Shown piece by piece: positions 24,120-50,693 of a DNA stretch of 64,000 bases. Numbering within the stretch: the first letter of the stretch is position 1; each line of letters opens with the position of its first letter. The notes beneath the pieces were generated by a model that saw only the letters and a list, made by a program, of their open reading frames with translations, was not told where the DNA came from and ran no database searches. The stretch comes from Eubacterium sp. AB3007 (GTDB lineage: Bacteria > Bacillota > Clostridia > Peptostreptococcales > Anaerovoracaceae): the NCBI RefSeq assembly GCF_000688015.1, contig NZ_JIAD01000001.1, forward strand, positions 1,116,001 through 1,180,000, in the 5' to 3' direction. The position numbers and the translations under genes were made by a program.

Positions 24120-24443
24120 ATGCCCAAGAAGACTTTTGACAATCTGACGGAGCCTATGTTCTATGTGCTTCTCTGTTTCTACCAGCAGGACATGTGCGGA
24201 GCGGAGATCGCGGCTCGCGTCACAGAACTGACCGCGGGCCGCGTCCGCATCGGACCTGGTACACTCTACACCCTTCTGGGCAGTTTTCAGAAGAACGATC
24301 TGATCCATGAGACCGGACGAACGGGCCGGCGGATCACCTATGCGATAACAGAGAAAGGCAGACAGATCTATCTGAATGAGATCTTTCGTCTGGAGCAGTG
24401 CCTCCGGGATGCAAGGTGTGTCAAAGGGGACGGTTCTTTTTGA
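24120..24443 (+). CDS. PadR-family transcriptional regulator with repeat-encoded tail
   Basis: A 107-residue PadR winged-helix protein (LTEPMFYVLLCFYQQDMCGAE; VRIGPGTLYTLLGSFQKNDLI; GRRITYAITEKGRQIYLNEI). PadR proteins repress transporter or stress genes and respond to ligands. Two palindromes in its promoter suggest autorepression. The last eight codons (CVKGDGSF) and the stop come from a dispersed repeat that starts at 24416, so the native C-terminus has been replaced or extended. It is followed by a DUF2812 protein, the common partner of PadR in Firmicutes. Confidence 0.9.
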   Translation: MPKKTFDNLTEPMFYVLLCFYQQDMCGAEIAARVTELTAGRVRIGPGTLYTLLGSFQKNDLIHETGRTGRRITYAITEKGRQIYLNEIFRLEQCLRDARCVKGDGSF

Positions 24444-24485
24444 CACACCCGAATGTGTCGAAAAGAACCGTCCCCTTTGACACAC
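24416..24485. repeat. Dispersed GGGGACGG repeat, inverted pair (locus 3)
   Basis: Arm 1 at 24416-24448 and an inverted arm 2 at 24454-24485, separated by five bases. Arm 2 has one mismatch (TGTCGAAAAG instead of TGTCAAAAAG). The pair overlaps the padR stop codon and ends 21 bases before the DUF2812 gene, so the strong hairpin could limit read-through between the two. Confidence 0.95.
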
Positions 24486-24506
24486 TTAGGTCAGAAAGGA
24501 TATGGA

Positions 24507-25739
24507 ATGAGAAAACGAGACAGCAACACACTATGGAAGCTGAAACTGCTGGGTTCCTGGAGCTTCGATCGGCTGGAGTCCTGGTTCACCGATATGGCCT
24601 CCAAGGGCTGGTATCTGGAGGACTTTGGTCCCTTCAGAGCCAGGTTTCGACGCGCTGAGCCCACGGAGCAACCCATACCAGCACGCCGTTATCGTGCTGC
24701 CCTTCAGTTTGACGGGGAGATAGAAGAGGAAGAGAAGAGTATTTACGAAGAGTGCGGCTGGCATTTCGTCAGCCATTGGAATGGCGTCAACATGTTTTGT
24801 AGCGATGATTCGAACGCTCCGGAGTTTTTCTCCGACGATGTCAGTTTTCGAAAGCGCTCGCGAGGATTCTTTCTCAACCTGGTATTCTGGCTGGTCCTTT
24901 ATCTTTCCTACCTCTGGAACACTTTCATTTATGGAATCGGCAAAGATATAACCACCGGCCCTCTTCACCTGTTGAATGAGCCTTTATTCCCACTGTTTCT
25001 TCTGTCACTGGTCATCGTGGCGGTTTTCTGGCTGTTTACCAGTTATCAGATAATCAGGGCTTTGTACCTGCTTCGGCGAAGACACTATCGTCACGATGTG
25101 CCCTACAGGAAAACACTGCACGCCGGCAATGTTCTCATGATTTCTCTGGTACTGATGCTGTTGCTGTCGCTGGCAGTCGTGGCACTGGACAACTCCAGCC
25201 TGTGGCACAAAGATCCTCTTAACTGGCAATCCCCCCACCCGGTGACCCTTGCAGAGTTCAACAAACCCCTGCACGAGGAATATCGCAAGCGCAAGGATGA
25301 CGCTGTCTACACCCAGTTTACTGATTATTGGGGCGATACGCGCCGGTCGATCTTGTTTCACGATGCTCGCCGCATTTATTATGCGGGCAGATCGGTCGAA
25401 CACCTCCCCTTCGACGATACAAGGTTATCCACCAAATACTACTATGCCGCTCAATACTACGAAGCTCGCTCGAAGACCATCGCCCGTAAGTATATGGAAG
25501 AGGAGATCAGGCAAAACGACTGGCTGAATGAGACCACAGACCCAGATTCTATCCGCATCCCATGTGCCGGAGTCGACTACGCCGGCTACTATCAGGAATA
25601 TGAGGATGCCGAGCAGTACCTCTACCTGCGAAAAGGCTCTCGCCTGGAGATCATCGTATTGAAGACAGAGGGAAAGGATCTACGGGACAGCCTGACGCTT
25701 TTTGTCCGAGATCTCAACGAGCAGGCCAATGGGGTGTGA
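24507..25739 (+). CDS. DUF2812 membrane protein (PadR partner)
   Basis: A 410-residue protein. An N-terminal DUF2812 region (LWKLKLLGSWSFDRLESWFTDMASKGWYL) carries the usual pattern of a short amphipathic domain. Hydrophobic segments follow near residues 120-140, 155-180 and 215-235, and then a long soluble C-terminal domain. The function of DUF2812 is unknown; such proteins are usually coded next to PadR regulators. ATG 24507 is chosen because AGAAAGGA precedes it by six bases; an upstream in-frame ATG at 24453 lies inside the repeat hairpin. The stop codon is two bases before another repeat arm. Confidence 0.8.
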   Translation: MRKRDSNTLWKLKLLGSWSFDRLESWFTDMASKGWYLEDFGPFRARFRRAEPTEQPIPARRYRAALQFDGEIEEEEKSIYEECGWHFVSHWNGVNMFCSDDSNAPEFFSDDVSFRKRSRGFFLNLVFWLVLYLSYLWNTFIYGIGKDITTGPLHLLNEPLFPLFLLSLVIVAVFWLFTSYQIIRALYLLRRRHYRHDVPYRKTLHAGNVLMISLVLMLLLSLAVVALDNSSLWHKDPLNWQSPHPVTLAEFNKPLHEEYRKRKDDAVYTQFTDYWGDTRRSILFHDARRIYYAGRSVEHLPFDDTRLSTKYYYAAQYYEARSKTIARKYMEEEIRQNDWLNETTDPDSIRIPCAGVDYAGYYQEYEDAEQYLYLRKGSRLEIIVLKTEGKDLRDSLTLFVRDLNEQANGV

Positions 25740-25741
25740 AG

Positions 25742-25774
25742 GTGTGTCAATAAGAACCGTCCCCTTTGACACAC
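25742..25774 (-). repeat. Dispersed GGGGACGG repeat, single arm (locus 4)
   Basis: One arm in the opposite orientation (GTGTGTCAATAAGAACCGTC then CCCTTTGACACAC) with one mismatch. It lies in the 44 bases between the convergent ends of the DUF2812 gene and the RNA methyltransferase gene. Confidence 0.93.
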
Positions 25775-25783
25775 TCAGACACA

Positions 25784-26908
25784 CTACCTCTTTCCATGGT
25801 ACTGGTAATAGGTGGTCTCGATGTTGCCGTTGAAGAGCTTGCGGCGCCGGTCTGCCTTTCGGCGGAGGGCCTTCTCCAGCCCCTTGTCCGAGGTTAGGAG
25901 GAAGAAAGACCATCGCGGCGATTCCTTCATCAGTCTGCTCAGGATCTTGTAGACTTTCTGGATCCCCGTTTCTGACCCGATGCGCTTTCCATAGGGCAGG
26001 TTGCTGATCATAATCCCGCCCTCTTCCGGCAGATTCTCCCTGAGAGACAGGTCAGCACGGGAGAAGCGGATGCAGTCCTCCACACCAGCGGCGGCGGCAT
26101 TGGTGCGTGTGGCCGCCGCCGCCCTTGGGTCGATGTCGGAGGCGTAGATCTCCAGCGGCGTTTCCGTTTGGATGGCGGCGTAGGCTGCTCGCCTCTCCTC
26201 CTTCCAGATGGACGAATCCATCAAGTCCCAGTCCTCTGCCGCAAAATGCCGAGACAATCCCGGAGCGATGTTACGCCCTATCAGTGCTGCCTCGATCGGA
26301 ATCGTGCCGCTGCCGCAGCAGGGGTCCAAAAGGACACGGCCCGGTTTCCAGAAAGACAACTGGATTAGGGCGGCCGCCATGGTTTCCTTGATAGGGGCGG
26401 CCACGTCAGCTTCCCGGTATCCTCGCTTGTGCAGCGCGGTACCACTTGTATCCACGGTGAGCAAGGCTTTGTCCTTCAGAAGGGATACCTTGATGCGGTG
26501 CTCCGCGCCTGTTTCCGGGAGCACGTCCATGCCATAGCATTCGCCCAGGCGTTCCGCCACCGCCTTTTTCACGATGCTCTGGCAGGCAGGGACGCTATGG
26601 AGCCGGGATTTCACCGAGGAGCCGATCACCGTAAACTTTCCATCCGGTGGGATCAGTTCCTCCCATGCGATCCCCTTGGTCTGCTGGAACAGATCCTCGA
26701 ACGTCTCCGCCGGGAATTGTCCCATCACCAGCAGCACCCGGTCCGCACACCGAAGCCACAGATTGCAACGAGCAATCGCCCGCTCGTCCCCCAGGAAGGC
26801 CACGTGTCCGTTCTCCGTGCCGATGATCTCATACCCCAATGCCTGGATCTCCCGCTTGACGCAGGCCTCCAGACCAAATGTCGCTGTCGCCATCAATTCC
26901 CTTTTCAT
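25784..26908 (-). CDS. THUMP-domain class I methyltransferase, RlmL/YpsC-like
   Basis: A 374-residue SAM-dependent RNA methyltransferase. The N-terminus (MATATFGLEACVKREIQALGYE) and a THUMP domain at about residues 60-155 bind RNA. The catalytic part contains VLLDPCCGSGTIPIEAALIG (SAM site), YASDIDPRAAAATRTNAAAAG and the target-base motif SNLPYGKR. In E. coli the homologous part of RlmL makes m2G2445 in 23S rRNA; YpsC is the Bacillus relative. It is convergent with the DUF2812 gene; only a repeat arm lies between them. Confidence 0.88.
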   Translation of the reverse strand: MKRELMATATFGLEACVKREIQALGYEIIGTENGHVAFLGDERAIARCNLWLRCADRVLLVMGQFPAETFEDLFQQTKGIAWEELIPPDGKFTVIGSSVKSRLHSVPACQSIVKKAVAERLGECYGMDVLPETGAEHRIKVSLLKDKALLTVDTSGTALHKRGYREADVAAPIKETMAAALIQLSFWKPGRVLLDPCCGSGTIPIEAALIGRNIAPGLSRHFAAEDWDLMDSSIWKEERRAAYAAIQTETPLEIYASDIDPRAAAATRTNAAAAGVEDCIRFSRADLSLRENLPEEGGIMISNLPYGKRIGSETGIQKVYKILSRLMKESPRWSFFLLTSDKGLEKALRRKADRRRKLFNGNIETTYYQYHGKR

Positions 26909-26981
26909 ACCATCGTCCTTTCAGTTTTTAATTATTCTACTCTCTTTCTCTATTTTTTGCTACCTTTTTCCGATCCTCCCC

Positions 26982-27010
26982 TTGCTACAAGTGAGATTTC
27001 CATATATAAT
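26982..27010 (+). promoter_or_regulatory. mscL promoter
   Basis: TTGCTA, a 17-base spacer and TATAAT, 46 bases before the mscL start. Confidence 0.75.
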
Positions 27011-27055
27011 AGAGGGCAGCAATGATTAAATATTTATTATATGGAGGCGTTAATT

Positions 27056-27481
27056 ATGAAGAGTTTTATCAATGAATTCAAGGAATTTGCAATGCGCGGC
27101 AACGTGATGGACATGGCCATCGGTGTCATCATCGGAGGAGCGTTCGGAGCCATCATCACTGCATTGGTAGACAAAATCATCACACCGATCATCGGCGCCA
27201 TCTGCGGCGGTCAGAACTTCGCCAAGCTGGCCATCACCATCGGTGAAGCCAAGATCGGCTACGGTGCATTCATCCAGGCAGTCATCGATTTCCTGATTGT
27301 AGCTTTCGTCCTGTTCCTGATGCTGAAGGCAATCAACAAGGCCATGAACAACGTCAAGAAGCAGGAGGAAGAGGAAGCTCCTACCACCAAGGTCTGCCCC
27401 TTCTGCAAGAGCGAGATCGACATCGAGGCTACCAGATGCCCACACTGCACATCCGAGCAGCCGGAGGTTGCCGAGGCGTAA
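27056..27481 (+). CDS. mscL: Large-conductance mechanosensitive channel MscL with zinc-ribbon tail
   Basis: A 141-residue channel subunit. The conserved N-terminus [24 protein letters not shown] leads into the pore helix TM1. TM2 spans about residues 68-95 ([19 protein letters not shown]). The pore opens under membrane tension to release solutes during osmotic downshock. After the usual cytoplasmic helix there is a CPFC...CPHC zinc-ribbon-like tail at about 116-133, absent from E. coli MscL but seen in some Firmicutes. Start ATG 27056 has GGAGG eight bases upstream; a nominal ATG at 27041 contains that ribosome binding site. Confidence 0.95.
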
Positions 27482-27492
27482 TCAATTCTGTC

Positions 27493-27521
27493 AAAAAAGA
27501 GGCTTTCACAGCCTCTTTTTT
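27493..27521 (+). terminator. Terminator of mscL
   Basis: AAAAAAGAGGC / GCCTCTTTTTT stem with a seven-base loop, 11 bases after the stop codon. The A- and T-tracts would also allow it to work for the convergent gene on the minus strand. Confidence 0.92.
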
Positions 27522-27543
27522 CATCCAACAATTACCTCTGTAG

Positions 27544-28662
27544 TTACCATTTCTTCGCACGGTAATCATCGGTACGGTTTCCATCCTCGTCATAGGTGTC
27601 CGTTCCGGAGAACTTATATCTCCCCAGAATCTTCTCCACTCGCTCATTGCGTCCCAGTTCATAAGCCCGGCGTTCCTGCTCATAAGGGGTCAGCTTGTCG
27701 ATGTCTTTCATGTGGGCGGCTACCGGCTTGGGCACCACCAGGAAATACATCAGCGGGCTGATCAACAGAAGATGCAACAAGGTCACCAGACAAAGGGCAA
27801 TGACCCACTCAACACCTCGCAGGTGCACAGCGGCGCACAGTGCGATGAGGAGCAACACCTCCAGACAGTAGGCCAAATCCGCCAGATAGAATCGATTGAT
27901 CTTCCTGATCCCATCCTGCAGTTCCTCATCATACCACAGCCTCTTAAGCTTCTTGTTGGTATACTTGGAGAACCGATACTGGGTGTTCGCTATGAACACG
28001 CACTCCCGGAAATCCGCCAGCGTAGCCGGCTTGGACTCGATCACTGTCGGACCCATCTGCCCCTGTTCATAGTTGTAGTAAATGCTGCAGTGTACCGCAG
28101 TTCCCTCTCCCATAATGCGGATATAGGGACGCTCTCTGCGATCGTAATTGATCACCAGCTGTTCCCCGGCCTGTACCATGAGGGTTTCCTTGTCGATGCT
28201 CACGGTGGCAAATCCTTCCCGCACAAAGATCGCCTGGGTCCCCATCTGGTATCTGCCGCAATCGTCATATTCTAACTTGGTACTCTCCGAAACAAGAGGG
28301 ATCACCCTGGCACTCCCCTTGTTCCCCTTGCGAACCATCAGGTTGTAATCTGTGATCTTGCCGAAACTCTTGGTCCTGTAACCACCATCGAAAGAATCCT
28401 GCTCCAGTTCTGCCAGCCTGGCAACCCGGACTCCCTCGTGGGCGAGTACAACGCTCCCCTTGAGAACGATCAGCGTCCGATCAAAATCCGGAAGTTTGGA
28501 GAACGCTGACTCATCAAGTTCACAAGTCGCGGAGCTGAGCCGCCACACGAACCGACGCTCCAGATAGTCCCCGTCCTGCGGGTAGATCGCAAGCTGTGTG
28601 GTTTTCCCCCCGGTCCAGCGGGATGTCTTCTGATCTTCACTGCGATAGATCTTACATTCCAT
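27544..28662 (-). CDS. HutD/Ves-like cupin fused to a membrane domain
   Basis: A 372-residue protein. Residues 1-190 resemble the HutD/Ves family (SRWTGGKTTQLAIYPQDGDY, RLSSATCELDESAFSKLPDF, DRTLIVLKGSVVLAHEG), a bicupin of unknown function linked to histidine use or stress. Two hydrophobic segments follow at about residues 270-320 (YCLEVLLLIALCAAVHL; VIALCLVTLLHLLLISPLMYFLVV), and then a charged C-terminal tail. Start ATG 28662 fits the GGGAG ribosome binding site; in-frame GTG/ATG codons up to 28671 are alternatives. The HutD-membrane fusion is unusual, and the role may be sensing at the membrane. Confidence 0.65.
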   Translation of the reverse strand: MECKIYRSEDQKTSRWTGGKTTQLAIYPQDGDYLERRFVWRLSSATCELDESAFSKLPDFDRTLIVLKGSVVLAHEGVRVARLAELEQDSFDGGYRTKSFGKITDYNLMVRKGNKGSARVIPLVSESTKLEYDDCGRYQMGTQAIFVREGFATVSIDKETLMVQAGEQLVINYDRRERPYIRIMGEGTAVHCSIYYNYEQGQMGPTVIESKPATLADFRECVFIANTQYRFSKYTNKKLKRLWYDEELQDGIRKINRFYLADLAYCLEVLLLIALCAAVHLRGVEWVIALCLVTLLHLLLISPLMYFLVVPKPVAAHMKDIDKLTPYEQERRAYELGRNERVEKILGRYKFSGTDTYDEDGNRTDDYRAKKW

Positions 28663-28705
28663 AATCATCACTCCCGCTTATGATTATAACATGTTTCCAT
28701 GCAAA

Positions 28706-28730
28706 GAAAAAGGGGGGAGTATCCCCCCCT
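28706..28730 (-). terminator. Terminator of the SARP-like regulator gene
   Basis: AGGGGGG / CCCCCCT stem with a short loop, followed on the minus strand by TTTTTC. It lies 22 bases after the stop codon at 28752. Confidence 0.85.
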
Positions 28731-28751
28731 CACAAGAATAACTATACACCC

Positions 28752-29387
28752 TTACTCCGCTTCAGATAACTTCTCTACTCGTTCCCTGAGCACATCGCTC
28801 AACGGATTAGTAATGTATGCTTTCTCGCACAAAGCCTTCGCTTCCTTCTCCCTGCCACTCTGACTGAGAATGTCCATCTTCAGGAGAACGACTCTCTCAA
28901 ACAGCTCTGCATAATGCTGCCGGATCACCTTCTGCCAGTAGCAATCTTCGTCCATCAGGATTACATTTCCCTTGTAGAGGTCAATTGCCTCGTCCAGCAG
29001 GTCCTCCCGCTGACTCTCCTCATCCAGTTTTCCGGTAGCGCGCAACGCAGCCTTTTCAAAATTCTCTGCGTCCGACTCGAATTGGAAGGCATCGCTCAAT
29101 CGGTAAGCACCGTTGATGTTCTGGATGATCGCCTTCCCGAAATCCTTCTCAAACTCATCCAGCCTGTTGCGAAGCTCAAACACCAAGACCTTGATGGAAT
29201 TGGCTGGGTTCGCCATCGTCTTCCCGCTCCAAAGAACTCGTGTGATCTCGTCCATGCTCACGTATCTGTCTCTATTCACATAGAGGCACTCAAAAAGGAT
29301 CCATACCTTTCTGGGGGCGTCCCCAATTACGTGATCGCCGTAGCGGATCGTACAGTTCCCGAGCAATTCTAACTGTAATTTCTTCAT
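28752..29387 (-). CDS. Small SARP-like regulator (winged helix plus BTAD)
   Basis: A 211-residue protein. The N-terminal 90 residues resemble an OmpR/SARP winged helix (APRKVWILFECLYVNRDRYVSMDEI; NSIKVLVFELRNRL). The C-terminal part is a helical BTAD-type region with a TPR-like repeat (DLYKGNVIL...LLKMDILSQSGREKEAKALCEKAYITNP). Full SARP proteins activate secondary metabolism in actinobacteria. Short forms in Clostridia are uncharacterised. It lies upstream of the HutD-membrane gene, but a terminator separates them. GGGAGAG precedes the ATG. Confidence 0.78.
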   Translation of the reverse strand: MKKLQLELLGNCTIRYGDHVIGDAPRKVWILFECLYVNRDRYVSMDEITRVLWSGKTMANPANSIKVLVFELRNRLDEFEKDFGKAIIQNINGAYRLSDAFQFESDAENFEKAALRATGKLDEESQREDLLDEAIDLYKGNVILMDEDCYWQKVIRQHYAELFERVVLLKMDILSQSGREKEAKALCEKAYITNPLSDVLRERVEKLSEAE

Positions 29388-29543
29388 TTCTCTACTCTCC
29401 CGTCAACAAGTACATTCAGACGTATCGTTAGAAAAAACTCAACCATTTTGTATATTTTTTAATACACATGAATCATTCTAACAAATAGGTACTTTTTTGT
29501 CAATTGATAATTTGGAATATCTATACCTTTCCAGTAAAAAAAG

Positions 29544-29552
29544 TGGTATAAT
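29544..29552 (+). promoter_or_regulatory. Extended -10 promoter of the C-GCAxxG-C-C gene
   Basis: TGGTATAAT, 27 bases before the start codon, without a recognisable -35 box. The region 29388-29543 between the two divergent genes is AT-rich and otherwise empty. Confidence 0.6.
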
Positions 29553-29579
29553 AGTCCAAATAACTTACGGGAGGGAATT

Positions 29580-29990
29580 ATGAACAGAAAAGAACTTGCT
29601 TACAAACTTCATCACCAGGGGTTTAATTGCGCACAGGCGGTCGCCTGTTCCTACTGCAATGTTCTGGGATTCGATCCGGAGACCGTCTTTCGAATGATGG
29701 AAGCCTTTGGTTTTGGGATGGGATGTATGGATACCTGTGGTGCCGTCACCGGTATGGCTGCCGTCATCGGCATGAAAACCTCCGATGGCAACATGGACAA
29801 GCCCGGCACCAAGCGGGAGTGCTATGCGCTGATGCGTCAGGCACACGACGAGTTTCTGTCCATGAACGGCTCTGTCATCTGCCGGGAAATCAAGGGCGTG
29901 GATACAGGCAAGGTGCTCCGCAGCTGCGATGGCTGTATCGAGGATGCCGTCACCATACTGGACAAGCTTCTGCTTGGAATCGAGGACTGA
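29580..29990 (+). CDS. C-GCAxxG-C-C family redox-type protein
   Basis: A 136-residue protein with the family pattern of conserved cysteines and glycines: NCAQAV near 17, FGFGMGCMDTCGAVTGMAAVIG at about 44-65, and CREIKG...CDGCIEDAV near the C-terminus. These proteins are thought to be redox-active or metal-binding and are common in anaerobes, but the biochemical role is not known. It is a single-gene unit with GGGAGGG before the ATG. A bidirectional terminator separates it from the convergent dynamin gene. Confidence 0.8.
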   Translation: MNRKELAYKLHHQGFNCAQAVACSYCNVLGFDPETVFRMMEAFGFGMGCMDTCGAVTGMAAVIGMKTSDGNMDKPGTKRECYALMRQAHDEFLSMNGSVICREIKGVDTGKVLRSCDGCIEDAVTILDKLLLGIED

Positions 29991-30025
29991 CCTACAGAAC
30001 TCACAAGTTCACCTCGTAGAAAACA

Positions 30026-30065
30026 GGGACTGTCATACACCGTTGTGTACGACAGTCCCGTTTTT
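30026..30065. terminator. Bidirectional terminator between convergent genes
   Basis: A 15-base-pair stem (GGGACTGTCATACAC / GTGTACGACAGTCCC, one mismatch) with a four-base loop. T5 follows on the plus strand. It touches the stop codon of the dynamin gene, whose TAA uses part of that T-tract. Confidence 0.9.
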
Positions 30066-31314
30066 AGAGAGTATCTGCGATCCGCCTGAGCTCTCTGGCC
30101 AACCGATTGATGGCGTTGATCCGGTGGCAGACCTTGTAGGCGTTCTCCTCCCGGTAGAGAAGGATCCGGTCTAACGTCGATTTCAGATCACCGCACAGAG
30201 ACTCTGCCTGTGCCAGGAAATCCTCCTGCTCCATTTCCGTCAGGCCGATCCTGAGCATATCGATATCGTAGTGGTACTCCATCCCAAACTGCTCCCGCAC
30301 GCAATCTGAGAGTTCCATCTTGTATTCGTTCAGGTGGAGCATGTAATCCCCCTCGCACTCCCTCGCCCGCTGGCGCACCTCGGAGAGCTTCTCATCCACC
30401 TGAGCAAACCGTTCGTCCAGTTCCTTGTATTCCAGATTCATTGCCTTCCAATAGAAATCCAGCTGGGTGACCGCGCTGTGGATCAAATCCCCAAGTTTCT
30501 TGGCACAGGAGTCCTCCATGATCTCCCTGGCGTGTGCACTGCAGTCAGCCAGGATCTGCTGTTTCAACACCTCCACGCCGGCGCCAGTTCTGGCACTAAC
30601 GGGAAAGAGTCTGATCTCCTCCATACCCATCAGTTTCTGCAGGAGCATCCTGCAGTAGTCCATATATACCTTCAATTCTTCCTCACTGACGGTATCGACC
30701 TTATTCACCGCAAAATAGAACCGGGCGGCAAAATCCTTTGTGCTCCGCAGAAAATCGATCTCAATCTGGTTGATGGGGCTGTCCACCGACAGAAGGAAGA
30801 TCACTGCGTCGCTCTCCTTCATGTGGTCATACGCCACCTCGGTGTTATTCTTGTGGAAAGATCCTACACCCGGTGTATCGACAAAGGTCAATCCTCTTTC
30901 CAGGAACTCGGAGGGTGTGTGGAGCACCACTTCTGCAACGCCCTTGGCATTGTTTTGATTCTCCTGCTCACTGATGTATCCGGAGAGTTCCTGAAAAGGG
31001 ATCTCAGTGACCACACCATTGCGAAAGTGAACCTCCGCCATGGGAGCACCGTATTTCACCTTGGTCACCGCAGAAGTGATAGGCACGATTCCCACCGGCA
31101 GCACGTCGGCTCCCAGAATCCTGTTAGACAAAGCACTCTTCCCGCGCTTGAACTGTCCAATCACGGTCACGTTCATATCCGCATCATCCAGTCGGGCCAG
31201 CAGGCTCTCCACCTGGGCGGCCTGTCCTGAGGTCGCCTCCTCTCCAGAGAGAAGTTCCAGTGCTCTGGCGGTCTTCTCACGTATCGTCATTTCTCTGATC
31301 AGTCTCGGTAACAT
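30064..31314 (-). CDS. Dynamin-like GTPase
   Basis: A 416-residue large GTPase of the dynamin superfamily. G1 is GQFKRGKSALSN, switch I contains the invariant Thr in VPITSAVTKV, G3 is DTPGVGS and G4 is NKVD. The C-terminal half is helical and includes coiled-coil-like segments (ELDERFAQVDEKLSEVRQRARE). Bacterial dynamins bind and remodel membrane. ATG 31314 is preferred to an in-frame TTG at 31326 because TGAGGAGA precedes it. It lies downstream of fbp with a hairpin between, probably in the same transcript. Confidence 0.88.
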   Translation of the reverse strand: MLPRLIREMTIREKTARALELLSGEEATSGQAAQVESLLARLDDADMNVTVIGQFKRGKSALSNRILGADVLPVGIVPITSAVTKVKYGAPMAEVHFRNGVVTEIPFQELSGYISEQENQNNAKGVAEVVLHTPSEFLERGLTFVDTPGVGSFHKNNTEVAYDHMKESDAVIFLLSVDSPINQIEIDFLRSTKDFAARFYFAVNKVDTVSEEELKVYMDYCRMLLQKLMGMEEIRLFPVSARTGAGVEVLKQQILADCSAHAREIMEDSCAKKLGDLIHSAVTQLDFYWKAMNLEYKELDERFAQVDEKLSEVRQRARECEGDYMLHLNEYKMELSDCVREQFGMEYHYDIDMLRIGLTEMEQEDFLAQAESLCGDLKSTLDRILLYREENAYKVCHRINAINRLARELRRIADTL

Positions 31315-31331
31315 GGTTCTCCTCAATAATT

Positions 31332-31356
31332 CACGGGCGCCTTCAGGACGCCCGTG
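31332..31356 (-). terminator. GC-rich intergenic hairpin between fbp and the dynamin gene
   Basis: CACGGGCG / CGCCCGTG with a nine-base loop, just after the fbp stop codon. No proper U-tract follows. Similar CGGGCGC hairpins occur at 56.63 and 61.45 kb. Confidence 0.5.
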
Positions 31357-31360
31357 CTCC

Positions 31361-33313: not shown

Positions 33314-33345
33314 AGTTCCCCTCCATTAATCGTCATTAACTGTGA

Positions 33346-34623: not shown

Positions 34624-34725
34624 CTATCTTCTGCTTCGCGCTCTGCAAAGTATCTCGACTTCGTATCCAGGGCCATGCCCTTCAAAAACGGGCACAACAA
34701 AAAATTGCGCTCTACGCTTGATAGT

Positions 34726-34754
34726 ATTATACCTGTAATCTGCTGTTCGTGCAA
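34726..34754 (-). promoter_or_regulatory. murA promoter
   Basis: TTGCAC, a 17-base spacer and TATAAT on the minus strand, giving a leader of about 95 bases before murA. It begins just after the abrB terminator. Confidence 0.75.
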
Positions 34755-34763
34755 GTTCCACAC

Positions 34764-34789
34764 AAAAAAACCTGCCCCAAAGACAGGTT
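34764..34789 (-). terminator. Terminator of the tmk-abrB operon
   Basis: On the minus strand AACCTGTC and GGCAGGTT pair around a short loop and are followed by TTTTTTT. It lies 36 bases after the AbrB stop codon. Confidence 0.88.
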
Positions 34790-34824
34790 AATAATTCTTA
34801 AGATTTGGACTTGATGCCCTTCAC

Positions 34825-35067
34825 CTATAGTTTCTTCATTTCCTCAATGCATTTCCCACACACGTTCTTCCCGTGAATCTGTCTGATATCATCCATCTCT
34901 CCGCAGAATATGCAGGAAGGCTCATACTTTTTCAGCATGATGTACTGACCATCCACAAAGATCTCCAAGGAGTCATCTGTATTGATCGACAGATTTCTCC
35001 TGAGTTCCACCGGAATCACCACTCTTCCCAGGGCATCTACGGGTCTAACTATCCCAGTTGCCTTCAT
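34825..35067 (-). CDS. AbrB/SpoVT-type regulator with zinc-finger tail
   Basis: An 80-residue DNA-binding protein. Residues 1-47 are a swapped-hairpin AbrB domain (GIVRPVDALGRVVIPVELRRNL). The rest is a compact CxxC...CxxC motif (SCIFCGE...VCGKCIEEM) that likely binds zinc or helps oligomerise. AbrB regulates the shift from growth to stationary phase in Bacillus. In B. subtilis abrB also ends this gene neighbourhood. Clear TAGGAGG ribosome binding site, 10 bases after the preceding gene. Confidence 0.92.
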   Translation of the reverse strand: MKATGIVRPVDALGRVVIPVELRRNLSINTDDSLEIFVDGQYIMLKKYEPSCIFCGEMDDIRQIHGKNVCGKCIEEMKKL

Positions 35068-35077
35068 GACCTACCTC

Positions 35078-39661: not shown

Positions 39662-39742
39662 TCAATCATTTTTCTGAGAGTTGGTACCCTCAAATCCGAA
39701 TAACCTTGCAAGTCCGCTCACTCACCTTCTTTGCCATTTGCT

Positions 39743-42619
<2,877 letters not shown>

Positions 42620-42870
42620 CAATTGAGTTCCTCTCGGTTCTCTTAGCTTGCCATACATGGCGCTCATGTATGGTCTTTCTTGCTTTGTCAAAGAACATAC
42701 TGTTACGTTGTTCTTCTCCTGGCTTCTCGGTTGAAATCGTAGATTCATACCCTCTTGCTTAGTCTTTACTTACTAATACCTTTCAGATATTGATCTCGAT
42801 CTCTTACTGTGATGCATTTCTTGCAAGTTATTCGGTTTTCAAGGTACATATTAACTTCCGCAGAAGTTAA
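42620..42870 (-). other. tRNA-Ala to 23S spacer with boxA
   Basis: A 251-base transcribed spacer. On the minus strand it contains TGTTCTTTGA at 42688-42697, a boxA-like antitermination site, and the outer parts of the 23S processing stem. AACTTC...GAAGTT (42854-42867) forms a small hairpin just after tRNA-Ala. Confidence 0.65.
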
Positions 42871-42946
42871 TGGTGGAGAATAAGGGATTCGAACCCTTGA
42901 CCCCCTGCGTGCAAAGCAGGTGCTCTCCCATCTGAGCTAATTCCCC
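42871..42946 (-). tRNA. tRNA-Ala (anticodon UGC)
   Basis: A 76-base tRNA on the minus strand: acceptor GGGGAAT...ATTCTCC with one G-T pair, D-arm GCTC...GAGC, anticodon stem CCTGC-TTTGCAC-GCAGG giving TGC, T-arm AAGGGTTCGAATCCCTT, and an encoded CCA. It lies in the 16S-23S spacer, only 35 bases from 16S; no tRNA-Ile accompanies it. Confidence 0.97.
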
Positions 42947-42978
42947 ATAAAACCCATAGACAGTATCCAGTGTCTCCC

Positions 42979-44502
<1,524 letters not shown>

Positions 44503-44738
44503 ATGGTATGTTAACGCTCTCGCGTTATCATCTCTTTCCGTTTGTATCCGGTCAGACGCTTGCGTCTCTTGTTACCGTATTACTGTTTTGGAAATCTTGG
44601 GGATCATTCATGTCTCAATGATCCAGGTTGGTTAACATGTAACCTGTAATTGTCTTGTTTGACTACTAGATTTCTGTCTATGGAGTTTTCAATGTTCAGC
44701 GGACTTTCGCCCGCGCCCGCTTACCGCGAACAGTAAAT

Positions 44739-44767
44739 ACTATACCACTCTCCGACACTCATGTCAA
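44739..44767 (-). promoter_or_regulatory. rRNA operon promoter P2
   Basis: TTGACA (44762-44767), 17-base spacer, TATAGT (44739-44744) on the minus strand. A run of A and T bases upstream (44768-44811) resembles an UP element. The leader to 16S is about 230 bases. Confidence 0.85.
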
Positions 44768-44966
44768 CAACTTTTTTTGGTTTTCTGAAAGTTTTTTTTC
44801 GGTTCTCCCTCCCCCGCCTCTGTATGGCTGCGCACCCTTCCGAATCTCCTACCTCATATGCTGACTTCCCGGAACCATCCCGTTTGATGGAATCGAACTC
44901 TTCTTCTGGTCAGGGTATACATCCCTCAACACTTTCTTCCCTCGAAAACCAACCTGTTCCTACATT

Positions 44967-44995
44967 ATTATATATTATATACATTGCACAACCAA
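44967..44995 (-). promoter_or_regulatory. Possible upstream rRNA promoter P1
   Basis: TTGGTT, a 17-base spacer and TATAAT on the minus strand, about 230 bases upstream of P2. The -35 box is weak; tandem rRNA promoters are common in Firmicutes. Confidence 0.45.
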
Positions 44996-45123
44996 CCGAT
45001 ACCTGTTCCTCTTTACCCTCCCCCTAAGGGTATACTTTGGTATCACATTAAAGCGCAAAAGTATCCTCCGCAAATATTGAAATTCCAACAATACCGACCC
45101 TTTTTCACATAATTCCCACAATC

Positions 45124-45152
45124 TTGACAAAAACCCAATAATAATCTATAAT
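45124..45152 (+). promoter_or_regulatory. Consensus promoter of nhaC
   Basis: Perfect TTGACA-17-TATAAT, about 66 bases before the start codon. One of the two fully consensus promoters in the window. Confidence 0.9.
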
Positions 45153-45217
45153 AATAGATGCAATTAGCATTGGTTTTATTTTATTACAAAACTTGTCTTA
45201 TTTTAGGAGGACTTATT

Positions 45218-46849
45218 ATGGGTAAAAAGATACCTCTATGGCAAGCATACGTGGTGTTTCTCGTAACCATCATCGTACTTATGTATTGCCTGGGCATCCT
45301 CGGAATGCTTTTGGGGGATGCGTTCGCCTGTGACTATGGCGAAGTACACATCGCACTTTTAACGTCAGCGACATTCGCTGCAATTGTAGCCGCGGCTAAC
45401 GGCTACAAATGGTCATTCCTCGAGGCCGGCATGCTGGCCTCCATCAACCGTTCCATGCAGGCTATGCTGATCCTGGCAGAAGTCGGTCTGATGATCGGCG
45501 CCTGGGTCGCTGCCGGTGTGGTCCCGGCTATGATCTACTACGGACTGCTCATCCTGAAGCCGTCCATCTTCCTGTTTGCTGCCTGCCTGCTGTGCTGCAT
45601 CGTAGCACTGGCTACCGGTTCTTCCTGGACCACCGCAGGCACCATCGGCGTTGCGCTGATCGGTGTTGCTACCGGTCTGGGCATCCCGACCGGTATGGCA
45701 GCAGGCGCAGTCGTATCCGGCGCTTACTTCGGTGACAAGATGTCCCCGCTGTCGGATACCACCAACCTAGCTCCTGCTATGGCAGGAGCCACCCTGTTCG
45801 ACCATATCAGCCACATGATCTACACTGTTACTCCATCTCTGCTCATCGCGCTGATCCTGTACCTGATCCTGGGATTCAAGAACATAAGCGGATCCGGCAC
45901 CATGGATATCGTTGAGCCGATGAGAGCAGCTTGCCAGATCAACTTCAACATCAATCTGTTCATGCTGATCCCACCGATCCTGGTTATCCTGATCGTCGCC
46001 CTGAAGATCCCTGCGATCCCGGGCTTGACAGCAGGCATCATCGCCGGATTGATCATCGGATCCATCTTCAACGGAGTAACTCTGGCAGAGTGGCCGGGAA
46101 TCATGCACTATGGATATGAGGTTCCGTCCTACACTGACACCTTCACCAACTGGGAGACCACCAACGCAGATGCCATCGCATCCATCAATCCGGATGCGGG
46201 CGGTTTGATGGATCTGTCCAACGACGAGTTTGCAGCCCTGCAGGCAGCTACTACCGTACCTCCTGAGATTGCCGGTGAGTACAACGTAGAGCAGCTGCTG
46301 GACGGCAGAGGCGGTATGGACGGCATGATGTGGACCATCAACCTGATCCTCTGCGCTATGTGCTTCGGCGGTATCATGGACGCTTCCGGAATGCTGGGCG
46401 CGATCGCACAGTCCTTCCTGAAGGTGGCCAAGGGCCGCGGCGGACTGGTTACCGCAACCGTATTCTCCTGCATCCTGATGAACGTCATCGCAGGAGACCA
46501 GTACCTGGCTATCGTACTTCCGGGAAGAATGTACAAGACCACTTACGAGGATATGAAGCTTGCTCCGCGTAACCTGTCCAGATGTCTGGAGGACTCCGGA
46601 ACGATCACATCCTCCCTCGTACCATGGAACACCTGCGGTGCTACCATGCAGAAGTTCCTGGGCGTCCCGACATGGGGCAAGGGCGGATATGGTTACTTCG
46701 CTTTCCTGAACCTCATCAATCCTCTGGTATCCATCTTCTACGGATTCACCGGTATCACCATGATGAAGATGACCGACGAAGAATACGAGCACATCCTGAG
46801 AGAAAGAGAGAGAGAGAAGGAAGAGGCTCTGGGAGAACTGGATGCATAA
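45218..46849 (+). CDS. nhaC: NhaC-family Na+/H+ antiporter
   Basis: A 543-residue membrane protein with about 11-12 segments. GTIGVALIGVATGLGIPTGMAAGAVVSGAYFGDKMSPLSDTTNLAP is the NhaC signature region, and a second one lies in LEDSGTITSSLVPWNTCGATM. An extracytoplasmic loop of about 80 residues (SYTDTFTNWETT...) splits the halves. It exchanges sodium for protons; some NhaC-type proteins instead exchange organic acids or arginine/ornithine, so the substrate is not certain. ATG 45218 follows TTAGGAGG; the frame extends to 45158 without a better start. The C-terminus is a charged helix. Confidence 0.88.
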   Translation: MGKKIPLWQAYVVFLVTIIVLMYCLGILGMLLGDAFACDYGEVHIALLTSATFAAIVAAANGYKWSFLEAGMLASINRSMQAMLILAEVGLMIGAWVAAGVVPAMIYYGLLILKPSIFLFAACLLCCIVALATGSSWTTAGTIGVALIGVATGLGIPTGMAAGAVVSGAYFGDKMSPLSDTTNLAPAMAGATLFDHISHMIYTVTPSLLIALILYLILGFKNISGSGTMDIVEPMRAACQINFNINLFMLIPPILVILIVALKIPAIPGLTAGIIAGLIIGSIFNGVTLAEWPGIMHYGYEVPSYTDTFTNWETTNADAIASINPDAGGLMDLSNDEFAALQAATTVPPEIAGEYNVEQLLDGRGGMDGMMWTINLILCAMCFGGIMDASGMLGAIAQSFLKVAKGRGGLVTATVFSCILMNVIAGDQYLAIVLPGRMYKTTYEDMKLAPRNLSRCLEDSGTITSSLVPWNTCGATMQKFLGVPTWGKGGYGYFAFLNLINPLVSIFYGFTGITMMKMTDEEYEHILREREREKEEALGELDA

Positions 46850-46895
46850 TCCAACCTACCCAAATACTCTTCACCAAGAATAAAATCCATGCTAA

Positions 46896-46923
46896 AAGAG
46901 GCGGCCACAATCGGCCGCCTTTT
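46896..46923 (+). terminator. Terminator of nhaC
   Basis: AGGCGGCC / GGCCGCCT stem with a six-base loop and TTTT after it, 47 bases beyond the stop codon. It can also serve the convergent U32 gene. Confidence 0.82.
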
Positions 46924-46958
46924 GCATATCTTGCTTACGCTTACCAACTCTGATCAAT

Positions 46959-49127
46959 TCATATTCCATATACCCTTCGCACACCGCTTCGGTACAGGTT
47001 TCCGCGCACGACAGCACACTCGCCCTCTTCGGGTACCAGCAACGTCTGGTCTGAATCCGGCCTCCGAAGGATACGAAGTGCCTCGTGTCTTTTCGCCAGA
47101 AGCCGTTCGCCATCCGGCGTATGCTGCAGTGTCATAAGTGGGACTTTCCCCGCTTCTCGGAAATCTACAGCTTCCAGACTGTCCACACAATGCTCCACCC
47201 CCAGGGAGGCCAGCGCCGCTTCTGCCTGACTATTGTACACGTTCAATCCGAAGTCGCCGTAAACCGGCACCCCAGCTTCGCGAAAGGGTGCGATCCACGA
47301 GAGATTCCCCACATAGACGCCTGTCTCCCGGCATGCTTCCACCACCTGATCAAAGTGTTCTTCCAACCAGTTCGATTCTTCTCCTCTGGTCACATTGGAT
47401 ATCCACGGGATTACTGTTTTCCCCTCACAAAGCTGGACATCCTTCTCCACGAAATACTTCACCGGCACCACCAGAACTTCCTTTTGGTCTTGCTTTCTGT
47501 ACAAATCCTCGGGATCCGTTGTCCTCTCAACGTCTGGCAACTCCCAGAGATATCGCTCCGTAATCTGCCCTTCTCTTCTGGTTTCCATAGGCTGGTACCA
47601 ACAGGTTGGTTTCAGCCGTCTCACTCGCAGCGCATCCTCCAGCACAGCCATTCCCTGCCTGCGCAGAGCATTCATCTCCGCCACGCGCAGACCTCCCAGA
47701 AAACGCCCTCGTATATCAACTTTGGTCACCGTAAACGCCGTTGCGCCGGTTTTTCGAAGGGCAGCAGCCAGCCGTTCCTCGTCCAGTTCCATATCACCGT
47801 GAAGAGCAGCAGGTACCTGAACCGTGCGCCCGCTCTCATGCTTCAGTACCAGTTCCAGATTCTCTCCCTTCCCGATCACACGGGCAGACACCCTGGTACG
47901 GCAGGCGGTAGGCTTTGTGCTATCGCCACTCAGCGAAAACCCTTGAAAAGTTCGTCGCACCGACACGAGCTGTGACTTGGAGAAGAGGCGATAGACCTTG
48001 TCCCCCGGATGTACCTCCCCATCGATGTCTCCGATCCGCCAGAGCGGCCCGCGTTTCTCCAGCCAGGTCACAAAGCAGCCTTCCACCGATCGCCCGCGGA
48101 TCTCGATACTGTCCCCCTTCGCAAGGGGCTTGGACAAAGCCATGTCGACCAATGCCGTTCCCTTAATGCGGGCCTTCACCGTGCCGACGAAGATCCCCTG
48201 GTGCTTCGGGATATCTCCGGCCATGAGTTCCATCCCATCATTCCCTCGCAGATACCCATCCGTGAAGCCGCCCCGGTTGAATATCTGGGCCAACGCTTCT
48301 CTATCCTCTTCAGAAACGCGACAGTGACCGCTTCTATAGTAGTTGTCAATATACTTTCGGTAGATTGCCACTACTGTGCCAACATACTCAGGAGATTTCA
48401 TGCGCCCTTCGATCTTCAACGAGCGGACACCGGCTTCGATCAACTCCCCCAGGTGGTCGATCAGACACTGATCCTTGGGACTCAGCGGATAGCGCACATT
48501 CCCCTGGCCTCCTACCGTCTCATAAGGAAGGCGACAGGGCTGAGCGCAGGCACCGCGGTTACCGCTCCGGCCACCGAAAAAACGGCTAAGTTGACACTGG
48601 CCAGAATAGCATACACAAAGCGCGCCGTGACAAAAGACTTCGATCTCTACGTCTGTTCCCTTACAAATCTGTCGAATCTCAGTCAGGGACAGCTCCCTCG
48701 CCAGCACGACCCGAGAAAACCCTAACCGGACAGCCGCCTCGACTCCACGCAGATCGTAAGTCGTCCCTTGCGTAGAAAAATGAAGCGGCAGATCTGGCAT
48801 GAACTGATGAATGAGTTTCGCCAGCCCCAGATCCTGAATGATCAGCGCATCCACCCCTGCTGCGTACAGAAAAGCCGCGTACTTAAGCGCCTCCGGGAGC
48901 TCTTCCTCCCGGAGAAGCGTATTCAGTGTCACATGGACCGCGACCCCATGCTGATGGGCGTAGTCAATGGCTTGCTGCATAGTCTCGTCGTCAAAATTCC
49001 CGGCGTTCATCCTGGCATTGAACAGTCGTCCCCCCAGGTACACCGCATCCGCACCGTTTTCCACGGCAGCGATCAATTGCGTTACGCCGCCGGCTGGTGC
49101 CAGCAGCTCGATCCTTTGTTTACTCAT
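46959..49127 (-). CDS. U32 family protein with DUF3656-type extension
   Basis: A 722-residue protein. The first 330 residues are a U32 domain (IELLAPAGGVTQLIAAVENGADAVYLG; FCHGALCVCYSGQCQLSRFFGGRSGNRGACAQPCRLPY, with the cysteines thought to bind an iron-sulfur cluster). DUF3656-like and further U32 segments follow. Despite the name 'collagenase', studied relatives hydroxylate RNA: RlhA modifies 23S C2501 and TrhP modifies tRNA. I infer an RNA-hydroxylation role from family. ATG 49127 is the conserved start; it has no ribosome binding site and a TATAAT six bases upstream. An in-frame ATG at 49196 is the alternative. Confidence 0.85.
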   Translation of the reverse strand: MSKQRIELLAPAGGVTQLIAAVENGADAVYLGGRLFNARMNAGNFDDETMQQAIDYAHQHGVAVHVTLNTLLREEELPEALKYAAFLYAAGVDALIIQDLGLAKLIHQFMPDLPLHFSTQGTTYDLRGVEAAVRLGFSRVVLARELSLTEIRQICKGTDVEIEVFCHGALCVCYSGQCQLSRFFGGRSGNRGACAQPCRLPYETVGGQGNVRYPLSPKDQCLIDHLGELIEAGVRSLKIEGRMKSPEYVGTVVAIYRKYIDNYYRSGHCRVSEEDREALAQIFNRGGFTDGYLRGNDGMELMAGDIPKHQGIFVGTVKARIKGTALVDMALSKPLAKGDSIEIRGRSVEGCFVTWLEKRGPLWRIGDIDGEVHPGDKVYRLFSKSQLVSVRRTFQGFSLSGDSTKPTACRTRVSARVIGKGENLELVLKHESGRTVQVPAALHGDMELDEERLAAALRKTGATAFTVTKVDIRGRFLGGLRVAEMNALRRQGMAVLEDALRVRRLKPTCWYQPMETRREGQITERYLWELPDVERTTDPEDLYRKQDQKEVLVVPVKYFVEKDVQLCEGKTVIPWISNVTRGEESNWLEEHFDQVVEACRETGVYVGNLSWIAPFREAGVPVYGDFGLNVYNSQAEAALASLGVEHCVDSLEAVDFREAGKVPLMTLQHTPDGERLLAKRHEALRILRRPDSDQTLLVPEEGECAVVRGNLYRSGVRRVYGI

Positions 49128-49133
49128 GGTCTT

Positions 49134-49163
49134 ATTATATAACGGCCTTGCAGGATGCGTCAA
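49134..49163 (-). promoter_or_regulatory. Promoter of the U32 gene, leaderless geometry
   Basis: TTGACG, an 18-base spacer and TATAAT on the minus strand, then AAGACC and the ATG. The mRNA would begin at about the start codon. A second, extended -10 element (TGGTATAAT at 49229-49237) could drive a longer transcript. Confidence 0.55.
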
Positions 49164-49276
49164 CGCCAACGCTCCGCTCATTGTACTTTTATTCATACAA
49201 TGTATAAAAAATGTGTGTTTTGTATCAAATTATACCATTATTTTTGAGAATATTTGGATTTTATCACAAAATCCCC

Positions 49277-49330
49277 TTGCCTCTTGCTTATTTATGTGAT
49301 ATAGTAGTTATGCACTTTAATATTTATTAA
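49277..49330 (+). promoter_or_regulatory. argG promoter and possible arginine-box
   Basis: TTGCCT, a 17-base spacer and TATAGT (49300-49305). Just after the expected start is TTAATATTTATTAA (49317-49330), a palindrome around a TT centre that resembles an AhrC/ArgR half-box pair. The promoter is fair; the operator is weak and only suggestive. Confidence 0.45.
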
Positions 49331-49366
49331 TTTTTAGATTTTTTTATTCAGAAAGGAAGTCTGACC

Positions 49367-50587
49367 ATGTCAAAAGAAAAGGTGATCCTTGCTTATTCCG
49401 GTGGACTCGATACCTCCGTCATCCTGAAATGGCTGATCAACGAGTATGACTATGAAGTTATCGCAGCCTGCTGCGATGCCGGACAGAGAGAAGACTTCGA
49501 TGCCGTAGAGAAGAAAGCGATCGCTACCGGCGCATCGAAGGCCGTTACGATCGATATCAGAGAAGAATTCATCACAGATTATATCTACCCGACTCTGAAA
49601 GCAGGCGCCATCTACGAGGGAGACTACCTATTGGGCACCTCCATGGCAAGACCTCTGATGGCTCAGAAACTGGTGGAGCTGGCGCATGCGGAGGGTGCCT
49701 CTGCCCTGTGTCACGGTTGCACCGGCAAGGGAAATGACCAGGTTCGGTTTGAGACGTCCGCACATGCCATCGATCCTTCTCTGAAGATCATCGCCCCCTG
49801 GCGGTTCTGGGACTTCCAGTCCAGAGAGGATCTGATCGAGTACGCCTCCGCAAATGGCATTCCCATCGAACAGACCACCGAGAAGATCTACTCCAGGGAT
49901 GAAAACATCTGGCATATCAGCCATGAAGGCGGGGAGCTTGAGGACCCCTGGAATCTCCACAAGGATACCATCCATGTTCTGTCCTGCACACCGGAGGAAG
50001 CGCCGGATGTGCCGACGTTCGTGGATATCACCTTCGAGAAAGGTGTGCCTGTCGCCATTGATGATCAGGCGATGGATCCCATCGCCCTCCTCACCAGGCT
50101 CAACGAGCTGGGCAGCCAGAACGGTGTCGGGACCATCGACATTATCGAGAACCGGCTGGTAGGGATGAAATCCAGAGGGGTCTATGAGACGCCGGGCGGC
50201 ACCATCTTGTTTGCTGCCCATAGAGATCTAGAGAAACTGATTCTGGACCGAGACACCATGCAATACAAGTCCATCGTGGCCCAGAAGTTCGCCCAGCTCT
50301 GCTATGACGGACTCTGGTATACGCCTCTCCGTGAGGCTATCTCCGCTTTCGTGGATGTTACCCAGGAGAAGGTGACCGGCAAGGTGAAAATGAAACTCTA
50401 CAAGGGCACTGCATGGCCTGTGGCCAGTCAGTCCCCCTACTCGCTCTACAACGAAGAGTTCGCCACTTTCAGTGCAGATGATGTCTATGATCAGAGCGAT
50501 GCGGAAGGATTCATCAACCTCTTCTCCCTGCCCCTGAAAATCCGGGCACTGCAGAAAGGGTGTGTCAAAGGGGACGGTTCTTTTTGA
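49367..50587 (+). CDS. argG: Argininosuccinate synthase with repeat-encoded tail
   Basis: A 406-residue ligase forming argininosuccinate from citrulline and aspartate with ATP. The PP-loop YSGGLDTSVILKWL is at residues 10-23, HGCTGKGNDQVRFE near 120 and the SSREDLI-like SREDLIEYA near 164. It lies alone; no argH follows, so either argH is elsewhere or argininosuccinate is not used for arginine here. The last codons (CVKGDGSF) and the stop come from a dispersed repeat beginning at 50560. The native end, just after PLKIRALQ, is thus extended. Ribosome binding site AGAAAGGAAG. Confidence 0.95.
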   Translation: MSKEKVILAYSGGLDTSVILKWLINEYDYEVIAACCDAGQREDFDAVEKKAIATGASKAVTIDIREEFITDYIYPTLKAGAIYEGDYLLGTSMARPLMAQKLVELAHAEGASALCHGCTGKGNDQVRFETSAHAIDPSLKIIAPWRFWDFQSREDLIEYASANGIPIEQTTEKIYSRDENIWHISHEGGELEDPWNLHKDTIHVLSCTPEEAPDVPTFVDITFEKGVPVAIDDQAMDPIALLTRLNELGSQNGVGTIDIIENRLVGMKSRGVYETPGGTILFAAHRDLEKLILDRDTMQYKSIVAQKFAQLCYDGLWYTPLREAISAFVDVTQEKVTGKVKMKLYKGTAWPVASQSPYSLYNEEFATFSADDVYDQSDAEGFINLFSLPLKIRALQKGCVKGDGSF

Positions 50588-50693
50588 CACACTTCTATAA
50601 TACGTAAAAAATGCACAAGAGGGGGCGCATCCCCCTCTTGTGCATTTTCTCCTCACGAAAGTGTGTCAAAAAGAACCGTCCCCTCTGACACAC
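50560..50693. repeat. Dispersed GGGGACGG repeat pair enclosing a terminator (locus 5)
   Basis: Arm 1 (50560-50592) and an inverted arm 2 (50661-50693, one mismatch) face each other across 68 bases that contain a perfect bidirectional terminator. The 3' ends of two convergent genes lie inside the arms: argG stops in arm 1 and the acyl-CoA ligase in arm 2. Extra partial units (CTCTGACAC) flank arm 2. Confidence 0.95.
50608..50648. terminator. Bidirectional terminator between argG and the acyl-CoA ligase gene
   Basis: An 18-base-pair perfect stem from AAAATGCACAAGAGGGGG to its complement with a five-base loop, A-tract on the left and T-tract on the right. It stops both convergent transcripts. 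Confidence 0.93.

What the first reader, a model, noticed from the sequence alone, without database searches (positions are those of the whole stretch)
24416..50693. The repeat supplies the C-terminal octapeptide and stop codon of three unrelated proteins
PadR (stop 24441-24443), ArgG (stop 50585-50587) and an acyl-CoA ligase (stop 50666-50668) all end C-V-(K/R)-G-D-G-S-F. In each case these codons and the TGA are the repeat itself. From outside, only one of the three frames of an arm contains a stop, which explains why all three share one frame. The element thus acts as a portable gene end, appending the same tail to a regulator, a biosynthetic enzyme and a lipid enzyme. Whether the tail is neutral, a degradation tag or an interaction motif is unknown.
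Basis: seen in the sequence. Interest (0 to 1): 0.75.

Follow-up and report, generated by a model that had tools for sequence, protein, structure and literature searches.

The report
Repeat element supplying gene ends
A short mobile-type DNA repeat sits at the ends of many genes in this bacterium, and in eleven of them its own stop codon ends the protein, leaving a small repeat-made tail on unrelated proteins; similar stop-codon donation by other repeats has been reported before.

Summary
PadR, ArgG and the acyl-CoA ligase end in CV(K/R)GDGSF*, and those codons are the repeat. The genome holds 55 arms at 41 sites. Eleven called genes end on an arm's TGA: ten in CV(K/R)(G/R)DGSF and one, through the arm's other face, in CVKKNRPL. 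All eleven are in one phase; no called gene reads through an arm. None of 58 compared homologues (7 of the 11 proteins) has the tail. ArgG relatives carry 23-25 residues beyond the junction, so ArgG was cut as well as tailed.

The repeat is best read as a REP/TIR-type element: arms flank a RAYT-like transposase gene, sites cluster around it, and 31 of 38 gene ends within 40 nt of an arm lie within 15 nt of it or inside it. The tail is most likely a tolerated by-product of insertion at gene ends. The stop then lies in a hairpin, which may affect translation (untested). REPs that give genes their stop codon, and 3'-end MITEs that change C-termini, are in print, so I file this as a new member of a known kind.

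The parts
24416..24448 (+). repeat unit (arm) ending PadR; tail codons plus TGA 24417-24443
24453..24485 (-). second, inverted arm of the pair downstream of PadR; the pair folds as one hairpin, -61.3 kcal/mol, z -13
24120..24443 (+). PadR-family regulator ending CVKGDGSF
   Evidence: homologues
49367..50587 (+). argininosuccinate synthase ArgG, shorter than genus orthologues and ending CVKGDGSF
50560..50592 (+). arm ending ArgG; tail codons plus TGA 50561-50587
50617..50639 (.). terminator-like hairpin, found on both strands, between the two arms
50661..50693 (-). arm ending the acyl-CoA ligase; tail codons plus TGA 50692-50666
50666..52513 (-). AMP-binding acyl-CoA ligase ending RVRGCVRGDGSF, the last twelve residues read as repeat-derived
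2693..2764 (.). inverted pair of arms (2693-2725, 2732-2764) between genes, no tail; folds at -69.9 kcal/mol
23979..24011 (+). single arm upstream of PadR
25742..25774 (-). single arm with one change in its core; the gene on the left stops 2 nt before the unit (TGA at 25737-25739)

Best explanation
The arm, RTGTGTCAAARGGGACGGTTCTTTTTGACACAY, is a short imperfect palindrome of REP/TIR type, found singly or as inverted pairs, most likely spread by the RAYT-like transposase whose gene is flanked by arms in this genome. It lands, or survives, at the 3' ends of genes. Where it lands just inside the last codons and in phase with its own first codon (TGT), the TGA in its right palindromic end replaces the native stop and the protein gains eight residues (twelve if an outer unit is included). 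Insertions in the other two phases would add longer, more hydrophobic tails and are not seen among called genes. The tail is therefore a tolerated by-product, not a tag. Shown: positions, phase, absence from compared homologues, the flanked RAYT-like gene, clustering around it. Inferred: insertion itself, mobilisation by that protein, and selection as the cause of the phase bias.
For: 55 arms in 41 sites, 14 inverted pairs and 27 singles. The RAYT-like gene (ORF G000:C1:1110923-1111660, Pfam match 1111295-1111624) has arms on both sides; its only NCBIfam match is REP_Tyr_transpos, profile positions 4-146 of 146. 12 of the other 39 sites lie within 130 kb of it against 4.4 expected, KS p 0.0018. 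38 called gene ends lie within 40 nt of an arm core or inside it: 11 tails and 27 with their own stop, 20 of the latter within 15 nt. 11 of 11 tails in one phase, binomial 5.6e-6 at 1/3. No tail in 58 compared homologues of 7 of the 11 proteins. In a second genus, G064 has 3 arms at up to 2 mismatches, all at gene 3' ends: one ends a cytidine deaminase in CVKGDGSD, two follow native stops directly.
Against: No empty site at DNA level was found, so insertion is inferred. The RAYT-like protein scores below NCBIfam's cut-off (51.3 against 80 bits), and its closest relative found (L063, 51% identity) has no GGGGAC motif in the 4.7 kb held. Tail length alone does not explain the phase bias well: at 5 of 11 sites another frame would give only 11-12 residues, which by my arithmetic leaves about 0.016 for 11 of 11. 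The peptidase M19 gene in L028 ends VCR* on a TAG inside what looks like a decayed outer unit read in another frame (10 of 12 bases; best of 192 control gene ends 9), so other phases can occur. The 27 gene ends with own stops show no excess of decayed units overall (p 0.48). In G268 a 126-codon frame, doubtful as a gene, reads through an arm.
Confidence: 0.72

Rival explanations
1. Post-transcriptional control element: the arm is kept at gene ends because a stop codon in or just before a stable hairpin slows termination, lowers translation or protects the mRNA 3' end, as reported for E. coli REPs near stops.
For: 31 of 38 gene ends within 40 nt of an arm lie within 15 nt of it or inside it. 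Of 7 tailed gene ends folded (of 11), the two pairs give -61.3 and -70.3 kcal/mol (z -13.1, -11.9) and four singles -20 to -33 (z -2.6 to -6.5). PMC12306157 (passages) says REPs fewer than 16 nt from a stop can down-regulate translation.
Against: No expression data. The seventh folded end, L026, is not much better than its shuffles (z -1.6, 16 of 200 as good). 8 of 41 sites lie between divergent genes, where no gene end is served. Arms are absent at up to 2 mismatches from the three other genus genomes searched, so this is no conserved control.
Confidence: 0.2
2. Targeted insertion: the transposase prefers TGA stop codons (or sequence at stops), so that TG of a native TGA joins the unit and the phase is set by targeting, not selection.
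For: Own stops just before arms are short of TGA (4 of 27 against 74 of 227 called genes, two-sided p 0.063); adding the 11 tails gives 15 of 38, near background (p 0.39). All 11 junctions coincide with the unit's first codon.
Against: ArgG lacks 23-25 and PadR about nine native residues beyond the junction, so the junction is not at their native stop; the stop-codon statistic is weak.
Confidence: 0.12
3. The octapeptide is a functional tag (degradation signal, localisation or interaction motif).
For: Nearly the same peptide sits on 10 proteins of different families.
Against: One of 11 tails has a different sequence (CVKKNRPL) from the other face of the same arm; the proteins (two regulators, biosynthetic enzymes, a transporter, a sugar kinase, a peroxidase, an EF-G-like protein) share no theme that I see; 31 of 41 sites make no tail.
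Confidence: 0.04

Closest known systems
TIR repeats of TIRtrons (Di Nocera et al. 2013, PMC3733652; abstract, sections 15 and 16 and passages seen)
   Same: Inverted repeats flanking a RAYT-related gene, unrelated to GTAG REPs, in some genomes also scattered as singles and dimers
   Different: The motif GGGGWSAS shared by some TIRs is not exactly met (GGGGACGG); this family and a common octapeptide are not in the parts I read
GTAG REPs / BIMEs with RAYTs (Nunvar 2010, PMC2817692, passages; REPINs, PMC3116915, listing only)
   Same: Short palindromes, inverted pairs, near gene 3' ends, copies near the RAYT gene; GTAG REP ends often give the TAG stop (PMC3733652, section 15)
   Different: No GTAG head at the arm; the stop is a TGA inside the palindrome, eight codons in
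QMITE1/QMITE2 of Coxiella (PMC5896051, passages)
   Same: MITE copies at gene 3' ends that change C-termini with little change in protein mass
   Different: Larger MITEs; no common octapeptide and no RAYT link in the passages seen
Rickettsia palindromic elements (as described in PMC3733652)
   Same: Palindromic repeats that code in frame inside proteins
   Different: Described there as insertions within ORFs, not chiefly as gene ends

Membership tests
TIR repeat of a TIRtron (RAYT-related gene with non-GTAG inverted repeats) | Inverted repeats flank a Y1/IS200-type transposase gene of the RAYT kind | tested here: met
   Inverted pair 33 nt after the gene's stop, single arm about 88 nt before its start; Y1_Tnp over Pfam's cut-off (44 against 23 bits)
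TIR repeat of a TIRtron (RAYT-related gene with non-GTAG inverted repeats) | Same repeat dispersed in the genome, also as dimers | tested here: met
   55 arms, 14 inverted pairs
TIR repeat of a TIRtron (RAYT-related gene with non-GTAG inverted repeats) | Motif GGGGWSAS (reported for some TIRs, not all) | tested here: not met
   GGGGACGG differs at one position
RAYT (NCBIfam NF047646) | Score above the curated cut-off | tested here: inconclusive
   51.3 bits against 80, though matched over nearly the whole profile and the only NCBIfam hit
GTAG REP | GTAG/GT(A/G)G head beside the palindrome | tested here: not met
   Consensus of 55 arms with 16 nt flanks shows no such head
Mobile element moved by this RAYT-like protein | Binding, cutting or movement of arms by the protein | not testable with these tools
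   needs biochemistry

The most novel reading that the evidence does not exclude
The element has evolved, or been sorted, to land harmlessly at gene ends: its palindrome carries a TGA in the same phase from both faces, so an insertion in the last codons gives a new stop at once and a short hydrophilic tail, and a related arm in another genus keeps the phase (CVKGDGSD). It would be a repeat whose coding phase is part of its survival strategy, with gene 3' ends as its niche.
Probability: 0.25. Interest if true: 0.6.

Novelty: new member of a known kind. Interest (0 to 1): 0.38.

Why it matters
It is a clean, countable case of a mobile-type repeat remodelling protein C-termini across one genome, with a strict phase that can be tested for selection versus targeting. 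It also warns that a shared C-terminal peptide in unrelated proteins can be repeat DNA and not a protein motif. Biosynthetic enzymes that carry the tail (ArgG, RibH, FolK) are natural test cases for how much a C-terminus can change.

Tried and rejected
Chance: rejected by reversed-pattern controls, 0 matches in the own genome and in the samples. Decayed outer units hidden in many gene ends: no general excess (27 gene ends against 192 controls, p 0.48); only L028 (10 of 12) exceeds the best control (9), and three of the 27 reach 9. Outer units before the arm in RibH and the ligase (11 of 12 each, 2 of 11 tails) were scored on another stretch without their own control. The arms' outward TTGACA as a promoter -35 box: 2 of 33 exits facing a gene start have a -10-like box at 16-18 nt, shuffle mean 0.58, 54 of 500 shuffles reach it; 0 of 40 exits facing a gene end; not supported in general. 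Known RNA families: the 4 Rfam matches in the window at gathering score are three rRNAs and a tRNA, none at an arm. Plasmid copies: no match. Exact 27-nt copies in viral contigs: none. Papers holding the core DNA or VKGDGSF: one unrelated fungal paper and none.

Not tested: relatives of 4 of the 11 tailed proteins (TetR, FGGY kinase, NAD(P)H-hydrate epimerase, EF-G-like protein) beyond profile ends; the repeat pattern in 13 of the 16 other genus genomes (only G004, G093, G142 were). Homologue ends compared were those of fetched loci: ArgG 9 of 13, ligase the 9 best from other genomes, PadR 7 of 7 (three are paralogues of this genome), glutathione peroxidase 9 of 9, RibH 11 of 15, transporter the 5 best from other genomes, FolK 8 of 8. 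The EF-G-like protein matches only 140 of 166 positions of the NYN_YacP profile, so it may be cut too; not followed.
Full report
Observation. The three ORFs named in the finding end where stated, and their last eight codons plus TGA are the repeat arm. The arm is 33 nt, RTGTGTCAAARGGGACGGTTCTTTTTGACACAY, from 55 oriented arms; beyond the 27-nt core the first two flanking positions pair in 55 and 53 of 55, the third in 36 of 55, and pairing fades further out. There are 55 arms at up to 3 mismatches in the 2.30 Mb genome, reversed control 0, in 41 sites: 14 inverted pairs and 27 singles.

Gene ends. I called genes with an ORF and codon-score script on 26 fetched stretches and the window. Eleven called genes stop on an arm's TGA: an EF-G-like protein with a NYN domain (L007...CVKRDGSF), a TetR regulator (L012), lumazine synthase RibH (L013), FolK (L021...CVKKNRPL, the other face), an FGGY kinase (L021...CVRRDGSF), a glutathione peroxidase (L023), an NAD(P)H-hydrate epimerase (L026), a BASS-type transporter (L027), and PadR, ArgG and the ligase in the window; family names. 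The EF-G-like protein scores far below the curated cut-off of its best NCBIfam match, tetracycline ribosomal protection (408 against 775 bits), so I do not call it a resistance gene. Another 27 gene ends have their own stop within 40 nt before an arm core, 20 of them within 15 nt. Site contexts: 23 co-directional, 9 convergent, 8 divergent, 1 undetermined.

Phase. All 11 tails start at the unit's first codon, TGT. No called gene covers an arm in another frame. With random phase this has p 5.6e-6. The other two frames would give tails of 11 to 128 residues; at 5 of 11 sites one of them is only 11-12 residues, so length alone is a weak filter (my arithmetic: about 0.69 to the 11th power, 0.016). 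The usual alternatives read VCQRGRFFLTH and VSKGTVLFDT, more hydrophobic than CVKGDGSF; selection against them is inference. One probable exception in phase: the peptidase M19 gene of L028 ends VCR* in what looks like a decayed outer unit.

Homologues. In 58 compared homologues of seven of the eleven tailed proteins, none ends in the tail. Glutathione peroxidase and RibH relatives end within a few residues of the junction; so do the closest relatives of FolK and the transporter, while others of those two run on for up to about 20. The ligase junction follows ...NMYVDE, where one relative ends ...NMDVE, so about twelve residues are added; other relatives end a few residues earlier or up to 17 later than the aligned part. 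PadR's two closest homologues have about nine other residues there. All nine ArgG orthologues compared have 23-25 more native residues beyond the junction (...EGVPE...KG(G)xF..). The general ArgG profile ends near the junction (398 of 401 positions matched), and no matched PDB chain aligns past residue 397 of 406 (10 distinct sequences), so the lost part looks like a lineage-specific extension.

Origin. A RAYT-like ORF lies at G000:C1:1110923-1111660, with an inverted pair 33 nt after its stop and another arm about 88 nt before its start. Pfam calls it Y1_Tnp and NCBIfam's only hit is REP_Tyr_transpos, below cut-off. Sites cluster around it: 12 of the other 39 within 130 kb, 4.4 expected, KS p 0.0018; Nunvar et al. 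report REP copies near the rayt gene (PMC2817692, passages). Of 8 related loci found, the closest (L063, 51% identity, record titled uncultured Chloroflexi) has no GGGGAC motif in the stretch held; one distant relative (L069) has GGGGACGTT-type motifs on both sides of the gene. Membership of the RAYT family is thus likely but not settled.

Distribution. In a family sample, 2 of 148 genomes (this one included) have arms at up to 2 mismatches; the other is G064 with three. All three are at gene 3' ends: a cytidine deaminase ends ...CVKGDGSD*, an SLH-domain protein and an AAA-ATPase-like protein have their stops directly before the arm. An exact 19-nt core occurs in 3 of 398 phylum genomes, this one included. 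In G221 an inverted pair lies a few bases after the stop of a long ORF that I recognise from memory as UvrB-like; on the other strand a 94-codon frame, doubtful as a gene, ends VVKGDGSF. In G268 a doubtful 126-codon frame reads through the single arm.

RNA. Three pairs folded give -61.3, -69.9 and -70.3 kcal/mol, with the tail's stop codon in the stem in the two that have a tail; seven stretches with a single arm give -14.8 to -33.3. One tested tail end (L026) is little better than shuffles (z -1.6). PMC12306157 (passages) states that REPs fewer than 16 nt from a stop can reduce translation; whether this applies here is untested.

What is in print. PMC3733652 (abstract, sections 15 and 16, passages; [quoted passage not shown] PMC5896051 (passages): Coxiella MITEs sit at gene 3' ends and alter C-termini, in one case giving 33 residues. 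PMC2229807 (passages): MITE reading frames fused to genes, one at a C-terminus. My searches for this repeat's core and for VKGDGSF found no relevant paper; the library holds open-licence papers only.

Verdict. A new member of the REP/TIR kind whose stop phase makes it a gene end; the shared tail is most likely a by-product.

Noticed in passing
24453-24508: Arms that begin with ATG can give an ORF start: the longest frame of the gene after PadR opens at an ATG inside the second arm, though its likely start is further on.
   Followed up: no
G000:C1:1460390 (L019) and 1183452 (L016): Most arms carry an outward TTGACA on both sides; at these two sites a TATAAT-like box follows at promoter spacing. 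Not clearly more than expected over all sites.
   Followed up: partly
50593-50660: Two arms stand on either side of a terminator-like hairpin between the convergent argG and ligase genes; G000:C1:790105-790227 (L009) looks to have the same layout by eye.
   Followed up: partly
L002:383-1132: The ORF next to the RAYT-like gene could read through the arm pair at its N-terminus, but a start after the pair (MDLLFPPSLY) looks more natural.
   Followed up: no
L001: A second Y1_Tnp gene (E 3e-42, 140-codon frame); no arm lies near it in the genome-wide arm list.
   Followed up: partly
50993-51082 and 62899-62988: Direct repeat of 71% identity, the second copy in another ligase-like ORF of the window (62590-63957; one search matches a relative there at 40%).
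   Followed up: no
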